Position numbers and translations under genes: made by a program. This document shows positions 56,437 to 64,000 of a stretch of DNA of 64,000 nucleotides, one piece after another. Every line of letters starts with the position of its first letter. Positions within the stretch are counted from its first letter, which is position 1. The stretch is from positions 229,093-293,092 of the forward strand of contig DYEA01000008.1 in assembly GCA_020725885.1 (NCBI GenBank). Reading direction: 5' to 3'. The DNA comes from Slackia sp. Its GTDB lineage: Bacteria; Actinomycetota; Coriobacteriia; Anaerosomatales; Anaerosomataceae. The notes beneath the pieces were generated by a model, which saw only the letters and a program-made list of their open reading frames with translations, did not search any database and was not told the origin of the DNA.

Positions 56437-56940
56437 GTGGCGCCGCAGGAGTCGTTCCTGCGGTCGAGCACGGGCGGGCTTCTGCTGGGCGCGAGCGTGC
56501 TCGCGGCGCTCGCGATCCCTGCGTCCGCGCCGATGTTCGCGGTGGCCGTCGCCGTGGCGGGGGAGCCTGCGTGGTTCCGGCCGGCGTGGATCGCCGCGGA
56601 TGTCGCGGGACTGCTCGCGGGCATGCGCGTGTGGCGGCTGCGGCCGTCGGTGCACGGCGGCCGGCTGCTTGCCCTCGACGAGTCGCCCGCGGCGCGCGCT
56701 GCGGTGCGGCTGCAGCTCGCGGATTCGATCGATGCGGCGCTCGACGTGCTCGCTCAGGAGCGCGTGCAGGCGCGCGACCTCGAGCGGCTTGCCGCGGCGC
56801 TGCGCCATGCGGGAGCGCGGTTCTGGCACGAGCTCCCGGAGCGGCAAGGCGACGTGTACGCGCTCGTCGCCCGGCACGTGCCGCCCGAGGTGGCCTCGGT
56901 CGTCACCGGGCTGCTGCTCGAGGGCGCGGGGAGGCGCTAA
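56437..56940 (+). CDS. Hypothetical membrane-associated protein
   Basis: 167 residues from GTG 56437. The frame stays open upstream and could begin at CTG 56368 (GGGGGTG ten bases before), adding a membrane helix (ILAAAALVAGACAYLVGYAF), which I think is the real N-terminus. Two more hydrophobic segments (about 12-45, 52-65) precede a soluble helical tail (LQLADSIDAALDVLAQERVQ). The 3' end overlaps the convergent anti-sigma-like gene by 4 bp. Function unknown. Confidence 0.55.
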   Translation: MAPQESFLRSSTGGLLLGASVLAALAIPASAPMFAVAVAVAGEPAWFRPAWIAADVAGLLAGMRVWRLRPSVHGGRLLALDESPAARAAVRLQLADSIDAALDVLAQERVQARDLERLAAALRHAGARFWHELPERQGDVYALVARHVPPEVASVVTGLLLEGAGRR

Positions 56941-57695
56941 GGCGTCTCGGCCGCGGGCCTGCTCGCATCGGGCTCGTCGTGCGTGGCCTCGTCGCTCGCG
57001 GGCTTGCTGAACCACAGCTGCGCGCGCATCGGCGACACGAACACCTCGTCGCTGCGCTCGCCGGGCTCGGCTTCCCACACGACGAACACGTGCCACCCGC
57101 GCGGCGTCGCCCGGTCGGACTGCGTCACGTCGGGCACTGACGCGTACCCGTCCTGACGCTCGAGCGCGACGCGGGGCAGCAGGCGCTCGGAGTCCGGCAC
57201 GGCAGGGTCGGGCTTGAGGAGCAGCTCGATGCGCTCGGGGGCGATGCGGAGGACGGCCTCCGGCTCCCACCCGGTACTGCCGAACGGCGAGAGGTCGATC
57301 GTGTGCTCGAGCGGCCGCACCGCTTGGAGCGTGCCGTCGTCGCCCATGGCCACCGCGAAGCGCGGGCTGAACCCGAGGTCGAGCAAGCGGATCGCGGACG
57401 CGACGCGCTCGACGCCGGCCCGCCGCAACGACTCGGCCCAGTCGCGGACGGCGTCCGCGAGGACGGCGACCTGGTCGCGCGGGTCCCGGACGAACCGCTG
57501 GCGCGCACGCTCGACCGCGGCGGCGATGGCCGCGTCGAAGGCGGCATCCGCCTTGGCTTGCAGCCGACGCGCGGCCCCTTCGGCAAACTTGGCGCCGCAT
57601 CGCTTGCATTGGTTCGCGTGGGCCAGGAAGCCTTCAGGACGCTCGCCGGTCTTCACATATCGACCGAATGCCTTGTCGAATTGCGCGCAGTCCAT
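56937..57695 (-). CDS. Zinc-finger anti-sigma-like protein coupled to the sigma-like gene
   Basis: 252 residues from ATG 57695, whose A is the last base of the upstream stop (TGATG). Cys3 and the H-x3-C-x2-C motif HANQCKRC (about residues 26-33) match the anti-sigma zinc-binding (ZAS) layout. A helical section (about 40-95) is followed by a beta-rich domain (about 105-230; VAMGDDGTLQAVRPLEHTI, WEPEAVLRIAPERIELLL). There is no membrane helix, so it would be a soluble anti-sigma factor. Its gene is the last of the six-gene operon containing the TPR-CHAT protease, which makes it a candidate protease substrate. That role is inference. Confidence 0.65.
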   Translation of the reverse strand: MDCAQFDKAFGRYVKTGERPEGFLAHANQCKRCGAKFAEGAARRLQAKADAAFDAAIAAAVERARQRFVRDPRDQVAVLADAVRDWAESLRRAGVERVASAIRLLDLGFSPRFAVAMGDDGTLQAVRPLEHTIDLSPFGSTGWEPEAVLRIAPERIELLLKPDPAVPDSERLLPRVALERQDGYASVPDVTQSDRATPRGWHVFVVWEAEPGERSDEVFVSPMRAQLWFSKPASDEATHDEPDASRPAAETP

Positions 57696-59254
57696 CAGGA
57701 ACACCTTCTATCAGCGTCGCAAGCGGTCCGCGCGACCGCGTCCAGCAACACGTCGAGGTCCTCTTCGCCGAGCATCACGCGCTCACGAGCGATGGCGCGG
57801 GCGATGCGCTCAATGCCTGCGTCCTGAAGCCGACCGAGGGTGCCCAGCAGGCGCGAGATCGCGTGTCGCGCATCTTCCCTGGCGCCCGGCCGGCTCCACC
57901 TGCCCCAGAGCGGATGCTCGGGGCGGCCATCGCGCTCGCGCAATGCCATCTCTGCCAGGCACCACTCCCCTTCGTGGAGACGGCGTACGCTCTGCGCGCC
58001 GCACCGCGGGCACACGCCGTCTTGAGGAGCGCACGGATCTTTGAACGGCGCGAGGCAACCAGCGAGCGCGAGGTCGGTCTGCGACGGTTTGAAACGCATG
58101 AGCGTGCGCGCGGTCGCAGCCAGGTCGAGCAGCAGCATCCAGCTGCGGATGGCGGTCAGCACGCGATCGCCTTTGCGGCGGGTCCGGTCGACCCATTCCC
58201 GGAGCAGCTCGTCCGAGCCGCGGGGTTCGTCGAGCGTGGCGACGAGCTTTTTGGCCAGCTCGCCGCTGGGACGGACCATGCCGAGCCGGATCGCGTCGAG
58301 CGCAGCGACGCGGCCGGCGTGATCGGCAAGCGTCTCGACGCCCTCCCTGGTCTCGCCGGTGGCGAACCATATGACAGCCACGACGCGTTTCACCGGGTCG
58401 CTCCAGCGCTTGCTGACGCCGGAGGACTTGGAGGCGCCGAGCAGCGCGGCCCGCTCCTCAGGCGCAAGCGCGAGATATGCGCGGACCGCCTCAGCGTCCT
58501 CGTGGGATACGAGGTTTGCGCGCTCCGCTGCATCGACCAGACCAGCGAGCCTGTCAGGGCTCTTGCTTGCGAGCGAGCCGAGCAGGATGCGCGCACACAC
58601 GGCGTTCACGCGCTTCTCGGCGTCTGCGTCGCCCACAGGCTCTGCTTCGCGCAGGACGCCGAGGAACGTGGCGCTGTCGAGCTCCCATTCCGCGATGTCG
58701 AATGCCGCCTCGAATGCTCCGAACTCTGCCTCAGAAACGAACCCGCCAGGGAGGGCCGCCGAGAAGTCGAGCATGTCAGTGGCTCGAGGATCATCCATGC
58801 GCGAAGCGCCTCTGCGTGCGATGGGTCCGCCGCTTGAATCGCTTCTGCCCACGGTGCCGGCATGCTGTTCAGTGTGGAATTGCTGGAAGGCTCTCTCAGC
58901 TGCCGTATGCAGGTATCCGACGAGGTTGCCGCTCTTCCAGGTTCGCAGCGCCTCGAAGACGCGTACCAGAGCAGCGGCAACGAGTTCTTGGACCTGGTAT
59001 TCTCCATGCGGTCCCAGGACCCGCTTGGCGTACTTGCCTGCCGCCGGCTTGATGACCTTGTTCGTCAGCCAATCCCACGCGGCGGGCTCTCCCAGCAGCA
59101 GCTTCTGCTGCAGGCGTTCGGGGCGCATCGACTCGAAGCGTGGCGACACAGCGGCCCTTTCGTGTCGACGTCGCAGGACGGCCGGACGGCTCCAGGATTG
59201 AAGCCGCCAATAGGGTACGGGTTCCACTACGACGTTGACAACGGCGTGCGCCAC
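57695..59254 (-). CDS. Sigma-factor-region-2-like protein with zinc ribbon
   Basis: 519 residues from GTG 59254 (GGAGG six bases before). Residues about 45-125 resemble sigma-70 region 2: LLLGEPAAWDWLTNKVIKPA, then VQELVAAALVRVFEALRTW and GYLHTAAERAFQQF. I see no clear region 4 helix-turn-helix; instead there are some 390 further residues, mostly helical, with a cysteine group CLAPFKDPC...CPRCG (about 430-450). So it is not a standard ECF sigma factor. It may contact the -10 element or polymerase through region 2 only. It lies between the CHAT protease and the anti-sigma-like gene. Confidence 0.65.
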   Translation of the reverse strand: MAHAVVNVVVEPVPYWRLQSWSRPAVLRRRHERAAVSPRFESMRPERLQQKLLLGEPAAWDWLTNKVIKPAAGKYAKRVLGPHGEYQVQELVAAALVRVFEALRTWKSGNLVGYLHTAAERAFQQFHTEQHAGTVGRSDSSGGPIARRGASRMDDPRATDMLDFSAALPGGFVSEAEFGAFEAAFDIAEWELDSATFLGVLREAEPVGDADAEKRVNAVCARILLGSLASKSPDRLAGLVDAAERANLVSHEDAEAVRAYLALAPEERAALLGASKSSGVSKRWSDPVKRVVAVIWFATGETREGVETLADHAGRVAALDAIRLGMVRPSGELAKKLVATLDEPRGSDELLREWVDRTRRKGDRVLTAIRSWMLLLDLAATARTLMRFKPSQTDLALAGCLAPFKDPCAPQDGVCPRCGAQSVRRLHEGEWCLAEMALRERDGRPEHPLWGRWSRPGAREDARHAISRLLGTLGRLQDAGIERIARAIARERVMLGEEDLDVLLDAVARTACDADRRCS

Positions 59255-59305
59255 GGGGTGCCTCCATGAGCCTCCATCGTCCGGTTCTCACCTGCTCTTA
59301 GGCGC

Positions 59306-61612
59306 TCAGCCGCGCGTTTCCGGAACGAGCGCTATCGGCTCTCCGGCACAGACGAGCCCCGCCCAGTAGAACGGATGGGCGGGGTCGTACCCGATCGCTT
59401 CCAGCTGACCGCTCATCGCGGCGAGCTGCGCCGCTCGTAGAGCATCGGGCGCCGGTGAGCCCTCGGCCATACCGTTGAGCAGGGCGCGGACGATGCCCGC
59501 GGTCGCGGGCTCGTACACGCTCCACAGCGTGCTGACAGCGCAGCGCGACACGCCGAGCAAGGCGCGGCGGTAGCCGAACAGCGCGTCGCCGCGGCTCGCC
59601 CGGGCACGGCCGGACTCGCACGCCGCTGCGATCGCGACGTCTGCGCGCATGCCCGAGCGGGCGAGGTCCGCGGCGGCCAGCCGGCGCACTGCGCCGGAGC
59701 CGTCGGCGTACCGGATGCCGCTCGCGTGGGGGTCGCGATGGTCGAACGTGCCGTGGCCGTACAGCAGCAGGAGGGCGCACTCGAGCGAGGGCTGGGGCGC
59801 TCCGTCGAGCCGCCGCGTCTCGCCGCCGAGCCGGGCAGCGAGCGTCTGCGCGGCCTGGAGCACCGCGGGCGCATGGTCAAGCCCGCTCCTGTCGCCGTCG
59901 AGCAGCAGCAGCGCGTCGCGCGAGCCGCCGCGGAGCCGCTCCGCGATCCGTGCGCGCGCGGACACCTGCGGGTCGCACACCACCGCCACGCGCTCCACGA
60001 GCCGGCCGCCCCGCTCGTCCGGCACTGTCAGCGCTGCGAGCGGGAGCTCGTGCAGCGGGCCAGTCGGCACCAGCACGAGCCGGCGCTTCTCGCCGGCAAG
60101 CCAGCCGGGTTCCAGCGCGACGACATCGGCGAGGAGCAGCCTTCCGAGCTCGGCGAGCGGGACGTCCCAGGAAGCGTCGCGCGAGATCCACGGGGAGCCG
60201 TCGGGGTACTCGGCGCGCTCGGCTGCTTGTATCTCCGCCCGAAGGCCGGAAGCGAGCGAGAGCGCGGCCGTGCCGGCTCCGGGCCGGTACGTCGCCCACC
60301 TGACGCCTGATGCGTCCACGGCCAGAGCGATCAATCCCTGTGCGCGGTCGTCGTGGGTGAGCGCATAGGCGATGAGCGCTTCGTCTGGCCGAAGCGATGC
60401 CGCGATCGCGCCCGCGCTGGCAGGAGGCACGCTCCCGCCGCCGGACGGCGCCTCTCCGAGCTCAGCGCGCAGCAGCGCCGAGCGGCCGCGCTCCGCGACC
60501 TCCAGAACATCTTCGAGCACGGCGCGCTCCGTGAGCAGCCAGGCGCCGCCGACGCGGGCGTCGCGCCGCCCGCGCTGCTGGATCCAGAGGCGGCACAGTC
60601 CGGAGGCGGGGTCCGGCACACGCTCGCGCCTGGCCTCGATGCGGATCTCGTCGACGCCGCTGCCGTACAGCGCAGACTCCAGAGCGTCGAGCGCCGCGCG
60701 GTAGTGGCGTTCCGCCTGCCCTAGATCGCGTCGGTGAGCGAGCGCTGCGTGTTCGAGGACGGCGAGCTCGGTGTACGCTTTGGCCGCCCGCCACGCATCC
60801 CCGCGGCGTTCGAGCCGCGCCGCGACGTCAGCGAGCGCTTCGCGAGCGGCCCGCCCCTCGCCGCATTCGGCGAGCGCCCGGGCGTAGACGAGGTCGACGT
60901 CGAGCTCGAGCGCGGCAGGCACTCGCCGCACGGACCCCCGAAACTGTCTGCGCAACGAGTCAGCGGCCGCGACCACCTCGCGGCAGGCCTCGCGCCGCTC
61001 AGGCGCAGGCAGCCTGTCTGCCGCCGCCATGCGGAGAGACAGCTCGACCGCTCGCGCATGCGCTGCTCGGCCGTGCTCGCCGATGCGCTCGAGCTCATCA
61101 GCGAAAGACGCAGCCCGCCTCAGCGCCTCGTCGTCAGGGTCGGCCGTGCAGGCTGCGGCGTTCACGAGGCAGTCCAGGCGTGCAACGAGCCACGCGCTGC
61201 CCTCGACCGTCTTGTCCCGGAGCCGGTCGTACTCGGCGGCAGCCTGTTCGAACGCCGCCCGAGCCTCGTCGTCTTCCTCCAAGGTCGCGTAGATGCACCC
61301 GAGCGTGAACAGCCCCCGTGGCAGGCAAGCCGGGGGAAGGGGGGCAAGCCGCCGCAGCCGCTCCAGCGCCTCGGCGGGCTGTCCAGAGCGCGCGAGCAGG
61401 CCAGCTACGTCCACCAGCGCCACTGCGGCCGCCTCGTCGTCGTGCCCGGCGAGCGCAGCCGCGGCGAGCTCCAGCACCTCGGCCGCCTCAGCGTAGCGGT
61501 CTTCCGCCGCCAGCGACTCCCCGAGCCGAAGCAGCACCGGTCCGCGCAGCGAGGCGGGCAGCGCGTTCAGCTCGTGTTCGATGTCGCGGCAGATGTCGGG
61601 TTGGAGCGTCAC
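59306..61612 (-). CDS. TPR-CHAT caspase-like protease
   Basis: 768 residues from GTG 61612. Residues about 15-330 are helical pairs typical of tetratricopeptide repeats (YAEAAEVLELAAAALAG, DDEARAAFEQAAAEYDRL). The CHAT domain (about 440-768) has the catalytic histidine in LLLYGHGTFDH (His620) and cysteine in IAAACESGRA (Cys665), both intact. CHAT proteins are clan CD proteases related to caspases and separase; many act in bacterial immunity, including Csx29 of type III-E CRISPR. The TPRs probably sense a partner. Located 51 bp before the sigma-like gene on the same strand. Confidence 0.9.
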   Translation of the reverse strand: MTLQPDICRDIEHELNALPASLRGPVLLRLGESLAAEDRYAEAAEVLELAAAALAGHDDEAAAVALVDVAGLLARSGQPAEALERLRRLAPLPPACLPRGLFTLGCIYATLEEDDEARAAFEQAAAEYDRLRDKTVEGSAWLVARLDCLVNAAACTADPDDEALRRAASFADELERIGEHGRAAHARAVELSLRMAAADRLPAPERREACREVVAAADSLRRQFRGSVRRVPAALELDVDLVYARALAECGEGRAAREALADVAARLERRGDAWRAAKAYTELAVLEHAALAHRRDLGQAERHYRAALDALESALYGSGVDEIRIEARRERVPDPASGLCRLWIQQRGRRDARVGGAWLLTERAVLEDVLEVAERGRSALLRAELGEAPSGGGSVPPASAGAIAASLRPDEALIAYALTHDDRAQGLIALAVDASGVRWATYRPGAGTAALSLASGLRAEIQAAERAEYPDGSPWISRDASWDVPLAELGRLLLADVVALEPGWLAGEKRRLVLVPTGPLHELPLAALTVPDERGGRLVERVAVVCDPQVSARARIAERLRGGSRDALLLLDGDRSGLDHAPAVLQAAQTLAARLGGETRRLDGAPQPSLECALLLLYGHGTFDHRDPHASGIRYADGSGAVRRLAAADLARSGMRADVAIAAACESGRARASRGDALFGYRRALLGVSRCAVSTLWSVYEPATAGIVRALLNGMAEGSPAPDALRAAQLAAMSGQLEAIGYDPAHPFYWAGLVCAGEPIALVPETRG

Positions 61613-61684
61613 GGCCTCTCCGTCGGCGCAGCCGTCTTGCAGTCAGTGTATCGGCGCGAGCAGCGTATGCGGTAGCGGCGCGGT

Positions 61685-62638
61685 TCAGATGAGGTCTGCA
61701 ATCGAGACGCAGAAGGGTTCAGAGTCCGTCTCGAGCTCGGCGCGGCGCGCCTCGTCCAGCCGTGCCTCGTACTCCCAGCGCTCGACCATCGCCGCCCGGA
61801 GCTCCTCGCGGTTGCGCTCCAGCTCCTCCCGGTGGATCCGTTCTCGCCTCCGGCGATCTGCCTCCGACAGCACCTTCGGGCCGCTCGGCTGCTCCTGGCC
61901 GAACCGCAGGCGAAGGGGCCCGACGCGCACGGTGTGCAACCCCCCGGAATCATGCCGGCGCTTCCGCAGGCGCACCGGAGCTGCCTTCCTGGGCGCCAGC
62001 TCGGGCGCTTGGAAGCAGATCCGGCGGAGCAAGGACACGGGGACGTCTGGCGCGTACTCTGTGGCGTACGCGTAGAAACCGAGCTCGGATGCGTATCGGA
62101 TCAGTTCTGCGTAATCCTGCTCCCGGCGCTTCTCGGTGATGATGTCCATGCTGCAGAGACGGGCCGAGCGTCGCGTGACGTAGATGAAGAGCCAGATGCG
62201 GTCCTGCGGCTCAAGCAAGTCGCACTGGGTCATGCAGAAGAACCGCGCGTACGGCCCCGCAGGGCCTTCGAGGCGCATGACGTCCTGGAAGCACTCGTCG
62301 ATCTCGTCGTGTCCGTACACCGCCACGACGGCGTCCGGCTTCTCCAGCGCGCGGGCCTTCTCGCGGACGCGCGGGGGGAGGAGCCGGATGTGGTCGGCCG
62401 CGGAGAACGTCGGCCGGAGCGTGCCGAGCGCGCTGCAGGCGGCCCGGGCGGCTTCGAGCACGGCGTCCAGCGTGCGGTCGTCGATCGCGTCGAGGACGGC
62501 CATCGCCGCAGCGTTCCTGACCTCCGCGTCGTCGTGCGTCGCCCCGGACGCGACGACGAGCGCGTCGAGCAGCGAGGGCGGCACGCCCGCCGCCACGCCG
62601 ACCGCCCTCACCGCATCTTCGATCCCCGGCCTAGGCAC
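61685..62638 (-). CDS. Unknown protein with C-terminal charged coiled coil, TPR-CHAT operon
   Basis: 317 residues from GTG 62638, overlapping the upstream stop by 8 bp. The N-terminal ~70 residues are alanine-rich helices. The middle (about 85-210) is an alpha/beta domain with AVVAVYGHDEIDECFQDVMRL, FFCMTQCDLLEPQDRIWLF and DYAELIRYASELGFYAYA. The last 80 residues are a strongly charged helix (DRRRRERIHREELERNREEL). No family recognised. It could be the sensor or adaptor that the CHAT protease reads. It has seven cysteines but no ordered metal motif. Confidence 0.65.
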   Translation of the reverse strand: MPRPGIEDAVRAVGVAAGVPPSLLDALVVASGATHDDAEVRNAAAMAVLDAIDDRTLDAVLEAARAACSALGTLRPTFSAADHIRLLPPRVREKARALEKPDAVVAVYGHDEIDECFQDVMRLEGPAGPYARFFCMTQCDLLEPQDRIWLFIYVTRRSARLCSMDIITEKRREQDYAELIRYASELGFYAYATEYAPDVPVSLLRRICFQAPELAPRKAAPVRLRKRRHDSGGLHTVRVGPLRLRFGQEQPSGPKVLSEADRRRRERIHREELERNREELRAAMVERWEYEARLDEARRAELETDSEPFCVSIADLI

Positions 62639-63128
62639 CGCCCTCGCCCCCTTGAGCGGCCTCCACCAAGAACTCCTCGACGGCTTGCTGCTCCTCCGGC
62701 GTCAGGTCTTTCTCGTTAGGCAGGGTGATGACCGTGTCGTCGATGCCACCCCCGAGCCGTAAACCGGGCTTCACGAGGATCTTCTGGACCGACTGCGGTG
62801 CCGGCTCGAAGCGTGTCTTGGCGTACATGTAGTCCCTGAAGTCGAGCCGCGGGTCCTCGAACAGCGAGAACTGTATCCGTATCGCGATGGGGTCGCCTTG
62901 GATGACCAAGAACGCCCATCCGGGCTCGGTGGCGCGGACCTCGATCTGGAGGAGCTTCGCGATGCCCTCGTCGAAATCGAGCAGGACGCGCCTCATCAGC
63001 CACTCCGGGACTTCACGCGGCGCGAGCCCCAGCTCGGCCAGGAGCACGCGGATCGGCGTGTACACGACCGCGAGCGCGATGAACGTGAGAGTCTCGAACG
63101 GCGTCTGTGTGATGCGTACCGTGTCCAT
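62631..63128 (-). CDS. Unknown small protein B, paralogue of the gene upstream
   Basis: 165 residues from ATG 63128. A hydrophobic N-terminus (TLTFIALAVVYTPIRVLLAEL) leads to the motif LLAELGLAPREVPEWLMRRV followed by DFDEG, then a beta-rich domain with WAFLVIQGDPIAIRIQFSLF. The acidic C-terminus ends EEFLVEAAQGGEGGA. It shares the spacing P-I-R-x-LLAEL-x-LA-x-R-x-VP-x-W with the preceding gene, so the two arose by duplication. Function unknown; possibly a two-component toxin, sensor or membrane-lesion protein of the CHAT operon. Confidence 0.65.
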   Translation of the reverse strand: MDTVRITQTPFETLTFIALAVVYTPIRVLLAELGLAPREVPEWLMRRVLLDFDEGIAKLLQIEVRATEPGWAFLVIQGDPIAIRIQFSLFEDPRLDFRDYMYAKTRFEPAPQSVQKILVKPGLRLGGGIDDTVITLPNEKDLTPEEQQAVEEFLVEAAQGGEGGA

Positions 63129-63130
63129 CG

Positions 63131-63640
63131 TCACCACCGCCCCGCACGGACCAAGACGTACTCGACTTCGCGGGAGAGGGCGAATTCCATCTCTGGGTCC
63201 CGCAGCTCGGGGCGTCGCCTGACCATCTCCGCAAGTCCGTTCCTGCTGAACACCATGCCGGGCGTCATGCGAGCGGTCTTTCGCGGCGTGACCACGAATC
63301 TGCAGAAGAAGTCTGCGTCTCCGTATCGTTTGCTCGCTTCGGCTGCTTCTCGGGTTTGCACGATGTCCCTCGACGAGAGCGAGAACACCACGTGCAGCAG
63401 GGCCGGCAGGCCGCCCGCTTTGGCTCGCAACCATCCGTCGTCGATCACCTCGACCTGCTTGATGCGGCACTGTGGCTTGTCTTCGAAGTCCTGGGCTATG
63501 GTCTGGAGCATCCACTTGGGGACGTCTCGACTTGCCAGCCGGAGTTCTGCGAGCAGCGTCCGGATCGGCAGGTAGATGCGCCAGATGAGTGTCTGTTTGA
63601 CGGTCTGCAGGGCTTTGGTGATGGGGTTTTGGCTTTCCAT
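63131..63640 (-). CDS. Unknown small protein A, first gene of the TPR-CHAT operon
   Basis: 169 residues from ATG 63640 with GAGGAGGG upstream. It has the shared motif IYLPIRTLLAELRLASRDVP then KWMLQTIAQDFED, and a beta-rich middle (CRIKQVEVIDDGWLRAKAGG, LLHVVFSLSSRDIV). The C-terminus (ADFFCRFVVTPRKTARMTPG) differs from paralogue B. It ends 2 bp before B. No family recognised. It begins a co-directional run of six genes. Confidence 0.65.
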   Translation of the reverse strand: MESQNPITKALQTVKQTLIWRIYLPIRTLLAELRLASRDVPKWMLQTIAQDFEDKPQCRIKQVEVIDDGWLRAKAGGLPALLHVVFSLSSRDIVQTREAAEASKRYGDADFFCRFVVTPRKTARMTPGMVFSRNGLAEMVRRRPELRDPEMEFALSREVEYVLVRAGRW

Positions 63641-63725: not shown

Positions 63726-63809
63726 TGATAGGAGGGCGAGCGATTGCGACCGGAACGAAGGAGCTTGGGACGAGGAACCGGGGCAGCTCGAGTGTCATGT
63801 GGTGGCGGG

Positions 63810-64000
63810 AGCGCGACCGGCTGAGCAGTCGAAGCTCATCTGAGCCATGACAGAGAGCGCAGCCAGGTGAGAGCGCTGGGTTTCAATCGGCTGAGCCGTC
63901 GAAGCTCATCTGAGCCTCTCCAAGACATTGTTCGTGCTGAAAAGCAGATCAACGAGGTCGGTTTCAATCGGCTGAGCCGTCGAAGCTCATCTGAGCCCCG
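63810..64000 (-). CRISPR. Trailer end of a CRISPR array, running off the right edge
   Basis: Two identical 37-nt repeats (63880-63916 and 63961-63997) begin GTTTCAATCGGCTGAG and end CTCATCTGAGCC. A third, 63810-63846, keeps the last 29 positions with one change, but its first eight are different. Spacers are 63847-63879 (33 nt) and 63917-63960 (44 nt). Read on the minus strand the repeat ends ATTGAAAC, the usual 5' handle of crRNA, so transcription runs right to left and the damaged repeat is the leader-distal one. Each repeat contains the small palindrome GCTCAgatGAGC. Leader and cas genes would lie to the right. Confidence 0.93.

What the first reader, a model, noticed from the sequence alone, without database searches (positions are those of the whole stretch)
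56937..63640. Possible undescribed protease-controlled transcription system: TPR-CHAT, sigma-like and anti-sigma-like genes in one operon beside a CRISPR array
Seen: six tightly packed minus-strand genes, ending in a TPR-CHAT protease with intact His620/Cys665, a protein with sigma region 2, and a soluble ZAS-type protein joined to it by TGATG. Known: in type III-E CRISPR, the TPR-CHAT protease Csx29 cleaves Csx30, which releases a RpoE-type sigma factor. Inference: here the CHAT protease, once triggered by one of the three unknown proteins, may cut the anti-sigma-like protein and free the sigma-like protein to switch on a response. The sigma-like protein lacks a clear region 4, so it may be a new type of regulator. 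No gRAMP (Cas7-11) is in the window.
Basis: partly seen in the sequence, partly recalled or inferred. Interest (0 to 1): 0.92.

Follow-up and report, generated by a model that had tools for sequence, protein, structure and literature searches.

The report
CRISPR-linked protease–sigma switch with own promoter
Beside a bacterial CRISPR array sits a six-gene cluster encoding a caspase-like protease, a protein with a sigma-factor-like domain and a predicted sigma inhibitor, and one promoter-like DNA element recurs before genes of both this cluster and the genome's type III-D CRISPR locus, so the protease likely frees the sigma-like protein to switch on the immune genes.

Summary
The six packed genes are real and sit in what is most likely one type III-D CRISPR island. 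In two sister genomes the genes that flank it here are direct neighbours (empty site). The cas genes are on a separate contig ending in the same repeats, so their place inside the island is inferred. RAMP genes were found only there; no Cas7-11. The fifth protein has a sigma region 2 fold (50 of 50 listed structural matches are sigma factors or sigma-position chains), the sixth a ZAS-type Hx3Cx2C motif. TPR-CHAT/large protein/ZAS-like trios occur in two other genomes of the order, one directly after cas1-cas2. New: an element CGTTCCGGTC-N16-CTA stands before the six-gene operon, the cas1-containing gene run (twice), a small membrane-protein gene and a NERD-type nuclease gene, and weakly before the sigma-like gene; none at ≤1 mismatch in 733 kb of the same genome. 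I read this as a protease-released sigma regulon, working like type III-E CASP but built on III-D. Cleavage, trigger and what reads the element are inferred. Ordinary sigma–CHAT operons also exist elsewhere, so this is a new variant, not a new kind.

The parts
63131..63640 (-). gene 1, 169 aa, no known family; paralogue of gene 2
   Evidence: ORF; no family hit of weight; 36% identity to gene 2 over 87 aa; homologues P0009, P0010
62631..63128 (-). gene 2, 165 aa (167 with the GTG start at 63134), hydrophobic N-terminal stretch
   Evidence: homologues P0011-P0014
61685..62638 (-). gene 3, 317 aa, no known family
   Evidence: homologues P0004-P0006 at 77-92%
59306..61612 (-). gene 4, 768-aa TPR-CHAT protease; His620 codon 59753-59755, Cys665 codon 59618-59620
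   Evidence: Pfam CHAT E 9.2e-28; dyad invariant in three; codons checked
57695..59254 (-). gene 5, 519-aa sigma-like protein
   Evidence: Pfam region 2 weak; model and structure comparison
58865..59134 (-). sigma region 2-like domain, residues 41-130 of gene 5
   Evidence: ten-residue pLDDT means 60-84; matched by sigma factors
56937..57695 (-). gene 6, 252-aa ZAS-like protein, predicted sigma inhibitor; Hx3Cx2C at 57597-57620
   Evidence: motif shared with two relatives of 25-29% identity; no strong hydrophobic stretch
63729..63757 (-). promoter-like element CGTTCCGGTC-N16-CTA, exact, 89 nt before gene 1
59299..59327 (-). weak copy of the element (2 mismatches), 45 nt before gene 5
   Evidence: not significant on its own
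63810..63997 (-). end of a CRISPR array: degenerate terminal repeat and two full repeats, read towards the operon

Best explanation
This is most likely the regulatory arm of a type III-D CRISPR-Cas island: a TPR-CHAT protease would cut the ZAS-like inhibitor and so release a sigma-like protein that is predicted to read a dedicated promoter in front of the cas1-containing gene run and of its own operon. Shown: the six genes, the protease dyad, the sigma-2 fold in the model, the zinc-type motif, III-D cas genes elsewhere in the genome with the same CRISPR repeat, the empty site in two sister genomes, the trio in two other genomes, and the repeated promoter-like element. Inferred: that the cas contig lies between the two flanks, that the ZAS-like protein holds the sigma-like protein, the cleavage, that the sigma-like protein is what recognises the element, and the trigger, which I think most likely is target RNA sensed by the III-D effector, by direct contact or through genes 1-3.
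Confidence: 0.55

Rival explanations
1. The protease acts on the sigma-like protein itself: its large helical C-terminal part is an autoinhibitor that is cut off, as in pro-sigma factors, and the ZAS-like protein is a partner or second brake.
For: About 390 residues follow the sigma-2 part, and no region 4 was found in them.
Against: A ZAS-like gene stands next to the large-protein gene in all 3 genomes of the order that have this TPR-CHAT, which points to a separate inhibitor.
Confidence: 0.17
2. The element is the site of another regulator (for example gene 3, or a protein outside the island), and the sigma-like protein controls something else.
For: The best-conserved part is a 10-bp box where a region 4 would be expected to bind, and no region 4 was found in gene 5 protein.
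Against: The fixed 16-nt spacing to CTA and the 38-46 nt to the start codon in 4 of 6 sites look like a promoter, not only an operator.
Confidence: 0.16
3. The module is a separate stress or defence module that merely sits in the same island as the CRISPR locus.
For: G062 has the trio without RAMP genes; sigma–CHAT operons exist in other genomes; G222 has III-D genes and no CHAT on that contig.
Against: The element is shared between the six-gene operon and the cas contig; both Csx19-positive genomes of the order have the TPR-CHAT, P about 0.0013 if independent; cas1-cas2 stand beside the trio in G013.
Confidence: 0.12

Closest known systems
Type III-E CASP / Craspase (Cas7-11, Csx29, Csx30, Csx31, CASP-sigma)
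   Same: TPR-CHAT protease, sigma-type protein and a candidate inhibitor in a CRISPR locus; the only PDB sequences hit by the TPR-CHAT profile at E<=0.01 are five CHAT-domain chains, which I take from their entry codes (recalled) to be the Craspase protein, with His and Cys aligned; sigma-type sites before cas1 (PMC10028731, passages)
   Different: No Cas7-11; a Cas10-bearing III-D system instead; weak similarity to those chains (about 22 bits, CHAT part only); CASP-sigma is an ECF-type factor, here only region 2 was found; genes 1-3 match no known family
CalpL/CalpT/CalpS (type III CRISPR Lon protease, anti-sigma, ECF sigma)
   Same: Protease, anti-sigma and sigma as output of type III CRISPR (PMC11417357, passages)
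   Different: CHAT instead of SAVED-Lon; no SAVED domain found in the six proteins
SAVED-CHAT effector of type III-B CRISPR
   Same: CHAT-type protease as a type III effector (PMC11229360, passages)
   Different: TPR instead of SAVED sensor; neighbouring system is III-D
Non-CRISPR operons of an ordinary sigma factor, a 210-250 aa protein and a TPR-CHAT of about 965 aa (unnamed family f33)
   Same: Sigma gene beside or one gene away from a TPR-CHAT gene in 6 of 12 loci fetched, Sigma70_r2 over the cut-off; CHAT domains closer by score than Csx29
   Different: Ordinary sigma factors of about 190 aa; no Hx3Cx2C in the 5 intermediate proteins tested; a subtilase gene in place of genes 1-3; no cas gene noticed nearby

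Membership tests
Type III-D CRISPR-Cas (contig C9) | Cas10, Csx10/Cas5-type and Cas7-type RAMPs, Csx19 | tested here: met
   Csx19 99.5 bits (cut-off 35), TIGR03986 RAMP 301.9 bits (cut-off 161), Cas10 PADLOC E 4e-89, Cas7_IIId PADLOC E 8e-122; the Csx10 model scores 47.1, below its cut-off of 177
Type III-D CRISPR-Cas (contig C9) | physical place inside the same island as the six genes | tested here: inconclusive
   same repeats, strand-consistent ends, empty site, but no contig joins them
Type III-E CASP / Craspase | single-protein gRAMP effector Cas7-11 | tested here: not met
   4 RAMP matches in G000, all on C9 in separate genes; gRAMP model 111.9 bits against a cut-off of 700
Type III-E CASP / Craspase | TPR-CHAT protease with His/Cys dyad | tested here: met
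   that it is a Csx29 orthologue is not supported (22 bits)
Type III-E CASP / Craspase | Csx30 and Csx31 | tested here: inconclusive
   no Pfam, NCBIfam or PADLOC hit of weight for genes 1-3 and 6; I did not check whether those libraries hold Csx30/Csx31 models
CalpL / SAVED-CHAT | SAVED sensor domain on the protease | tested here: not met
   the TPR-CHAT matches CHAT and TPR families only in Pfam; no SAVED hit in PADLOC
Sigma-70 family (ECF-like) | region 2 | tested here: met
   structure comparison with weak sequence support
Sigma-70 family (ECF-like) | region 4 | tested here: inconclusive
   no Pfam hit, but the C-terminal part of the model has low confidence
ZAS anti-sigma factors | Hx3Cx2C zinc motif | tested here: met
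   residues 29-36, also in both relatives
ZAS anti-sigma factors | match to a curated anti-sigma family | tested here: not met
   no Pfam family at E<=1; NCBIfam gives only unrelated weak hits
ZAS anti-sigma factors | binds and inhibits its sigma factor | not testable with these tools
   no complex prediction or bench work available

The most novel reading that the evidence does not exclude
A Cas10-bearing type III-D CRISPR system runs an RNA-triggered protease cascade that frees a new kind of sigma factor, with region 2 only and a large helical C-terminal domain in place of region 4 that reads the 10-bp CGTTCCGGTC box, and so switches on its own cas1-cas2 and defence genes: the III-D counterpart of type III-E CASP, reached by recruiting a different sigma–inhibitor–CHAT module.
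Probability: 0.33. Interest if true: 0.9.

Novelty: new variant of a known kind. Interest (0 to 1): 0.76.

Why it matters
It would show that protease-released sigma factors are a recurring output of type III CRISPR, beyond III-E and CalpL, and that a III-D system controls its own spacer-acquisition genes this way. The promoter-like element makes this directly testable with a simple reporter. A sigma factor without region 4 that still goes with a -35-like box would surprise transcription specialists. A CHAT protease answering an ordinary multi-subunit crRNA complex would also be of use as an RNA sensor.

Tried and rejected
Led nowhere: the structure of the gene 1/gene 2 family (mean pLDDT 40.5, not used). 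PDB sequence searches with the profiles of gene 3, gene 6 and genes 1/2 gave only matches at E 0.03 or worse. TAL-effector hits of the sigma-like profile, E down to 1.3e-5, had no stretch passing on its own and were taken as repeat artefacts. hhalign of the sigma-like proteins against seven ordinary sigma factors was not significant (best E 0.035, G062 protein, in the expected region). The gene 6 profile in 396 phylum genomes gave 6 other genomes at E<=0.01, best 7.4e-4, all partial. A scan of genome contigs for gene 5 found no relative. A tblastx comparison was too noisy and was replaced by tblastn. No analogue of the element was seen in G013. The general sigma-70 promoter scan gave 0 sites.

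Considered and rejected: a type III-E locus (no gRAMP); an orphan array (same repeat at the cas contig). Not excluded: C9 closed on itself as a circle.

Literature: searches are the searches behind the statement that I found no print account of a III-D locus with a TPR-CHAT/sigma/inhibitor module, or of sigma–CHAT operons outside CRISPR. Only open-licence papers are held, and the ECF re-classification paper was not. I saw passages of PMC10028731, PMC11229360, PMC10910872, PMC12669027 and PMC11417357, and of all other papers only listings. A figure legend of PMC10910872 names CHAT and ThiF among domains linked to CRISPR adaptation modules, so a CHAT–cas1 link as such is in print. 'Rubrobacter' was my guess at family f33; no call names that family.
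Full report
1. The observation. Six minus-strand ORFs fill 56937-63640, with spacing from a 9-nt overlap to a 69-nt gap. In order they encode 169 aa, 165 aa (167 with the GTG start), 317 aa, a 768-aa TPR-CHAT protease (PF12770 E 9.2e-28), a 519-aa sigma-like protein and a 252-aa ZAS-like protein whose ATG overlaps the sigma-like stop as TGATG. Genes 1 and 2 are paralogues (36% over 87 aa). Genes 1-3 match nothing of weight in Pfam, NCBIfam, PADLOC or PHROGs.

3. The island. The contig ends at the window's right edge inside a CRISPR array. The same repeat core has 15 matches in the genome, on C7, on both ends of the 15.2-kb C9, and at the right end of C13. C13 has a cas6-like gene there (E 7e-4, below cut-off). 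C9 holds cas1, cas2, cas10, two fused RAMPs, Csx19, a TIGR03986 RAMP, a CARF-RelE effector and a NERD-type gene just below its cut-off: type III-D. Two near-identical leaders (C13, C9) and two degenerate end repeats (C9, C7) show two arrays read in one direction. In G002 (one contig) and G001, both of the same genus, the gene before cas6 on C13 and the gene after the ZAS-like gene in the window lie about 100 bp apart, followed by the window's next genes in order. So the two contig ends face each other, and what lies between is an insertion. That C9 lies between is inferred. G003, same genus, keeps a gene 6 fragment (65% over 104 aa) at the same place, cut by its contig end.

4. Who else has it. 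Gene 5 has 3 hits in 5.8 billion proteins, one of them essentially its own, and among 99 relatives only itself. Gene 3 has 3 hits at 77-92%. Genes 1/2 have 8, two of them own. P0002, P0010 and P0012 (genes 5, 1, 2) share the contig length 31,599, and P0006, P0009 and P0013 (genes 3, 1, 2) share 3,973, which is strong but indirect evidence that they travel together. The TPR-CHAT profile finds 3 of 69 genomes of the order. In the other two, G013 and G062, it stands next to a large protein and a ZAS-like protein with Hx3Cx2C. Those large proteins show no significant sigma match, so 'sigma-like' is positional for them. In G013 the trio follows cas1-cas2 at a contig end, and a III-D locus 30-45% identical to C9's lies at the end of another contig beside a 15-copy array. 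Csx19 is in exactly 2 of 69 genomes of the order, G000 and G013; RAMPs are in 3 of 69, the third being G025. That both Csx19 genomes fall among the three CHAT genomes has P about 0.0013 if independent, a test chosen after seeing the data. Outside the order, Csx19 is in 2 of 396 sampled phylum genomes besides G000; one of these, G355, is below the cut-off. No CHAT relative was found on G222's 26.7-kb or G355's 7.5-kb contig. G062 has a ThiF-like gene near its trio and no RAMPs.

5. The promoter-like element. Comparing upstream regions showed a shared CGTTCCGGTC. It occurs 4 times in window + C9 + the C13 end (97.8 kb), each time upstream of an island gene on the coding strand and each followed after 16 nt by CTA. 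Scanning with the whole element finds one more site at 1 mismatch, before a 62-aa membrane-protein ORF at C9:514-702, and a 2-mismatch site before gene 5. The CTA lies 38-46 nt before the start codon in 4 of 6 sites, 89 and 118 nt in the others. In 732,856 bp of the same genome there are 0 sites at <=1 mismatch, 22 with 2 mismatches, and 8 exact 10-mers of which 0 have CTA at 14-19 nt. The definition came from four of the sites, so the fair tests are 4 of 4 against 0 of 8 and the later 1-mismatch site. The gene 5 site alone is not significant (the window has two other 2-mismatch sites). The element precedes the six-gene operon, the gene run that leads to cas1-cas2 (twice), the small ORF and the NERD-type gene; the C13 end with cas6 has none at <=2 mismatches. 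In the III-E system of D. ishimotonii, CASP-sigma sites lie before cas1 and two other locus genes (PMC10028731, passages).

6. How it most likely works. At rest gene 6 protein holds gene 5 protein. When the III-D complex meets target RNA, the TPR-CHAT is switched on, by contact with Cas7-type subunits (III-E is thought to descend from III-D2; PMC12669027, passages) or through genes 1-3, and cuts gene 6 protein. Gene 5 protein then brings polymerase to CGTTCCGGTC-N16-CTA and raises cas and module expression, a positive loop. Every step in this paragraph is inference.

7. Known and new. It works like type III-E CASP and CalpL/T/S. It is not III-E (no gRAMP) and has no SAVED domain on its protease. 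Its CHAT profile scores 76-121 bits in 19 other genomes of 396 at E<=1e-20 and about 22 bits against the CHAT-domain chains in the PDB. I fetched 12 of those 22 places; in 6 of the 12 a sigma factor over the Pfam cut-off stands beside the CHAT gene or one gene away; two others are cut by contig ends, and one more sigma-like ORF was not scanned. So a general sigma–CHAT pairing seems to have been recruited by a CRISPR system here.

Noticed in passing
L072, L074, L076, L078, L082, L083: Ordinary sigma factor, (in five of six) a 210-250 aa protein, a TPR-CHAT of about 945-985 aa and, in most, a secreted subtilase-like gene form a recurring operon in unnamed family f33 (subtilase confirmed by Pfam in L083 only).
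   Followed up: partly
L019:520-8054: In G062 the TPR-CHAT/large protein/ZAS-like trio stands near a ThiF-like (E1-type) gene and small membrane proteins, without RAMPs: perhaps the same output with another sensor.
   Followed up: partly
L013:1173-3117: Three genes of unknown family stand between the doubled promoter-like element and cas1 on the cas contig; no Pfam or NCBIfam hit at E<=0.01.
   Followed up: partly
L013:514-702 and 824-997: Two small hydrophobic ORFs (62 and 57 aa) between the array end and the cas operon; the first has its own promoter-like element.
   Followed up: partly
L013:4524-6197 and L045:10365-12005: The Cas10 cyclase motif reads AGDD here and GGDD in G013.
   Followed up: no
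L014:17703-17960 and L013:14700-15147: Two near-identical CRISPR leaders with repeated AGATGCACGC stretches.
   Followed up: no
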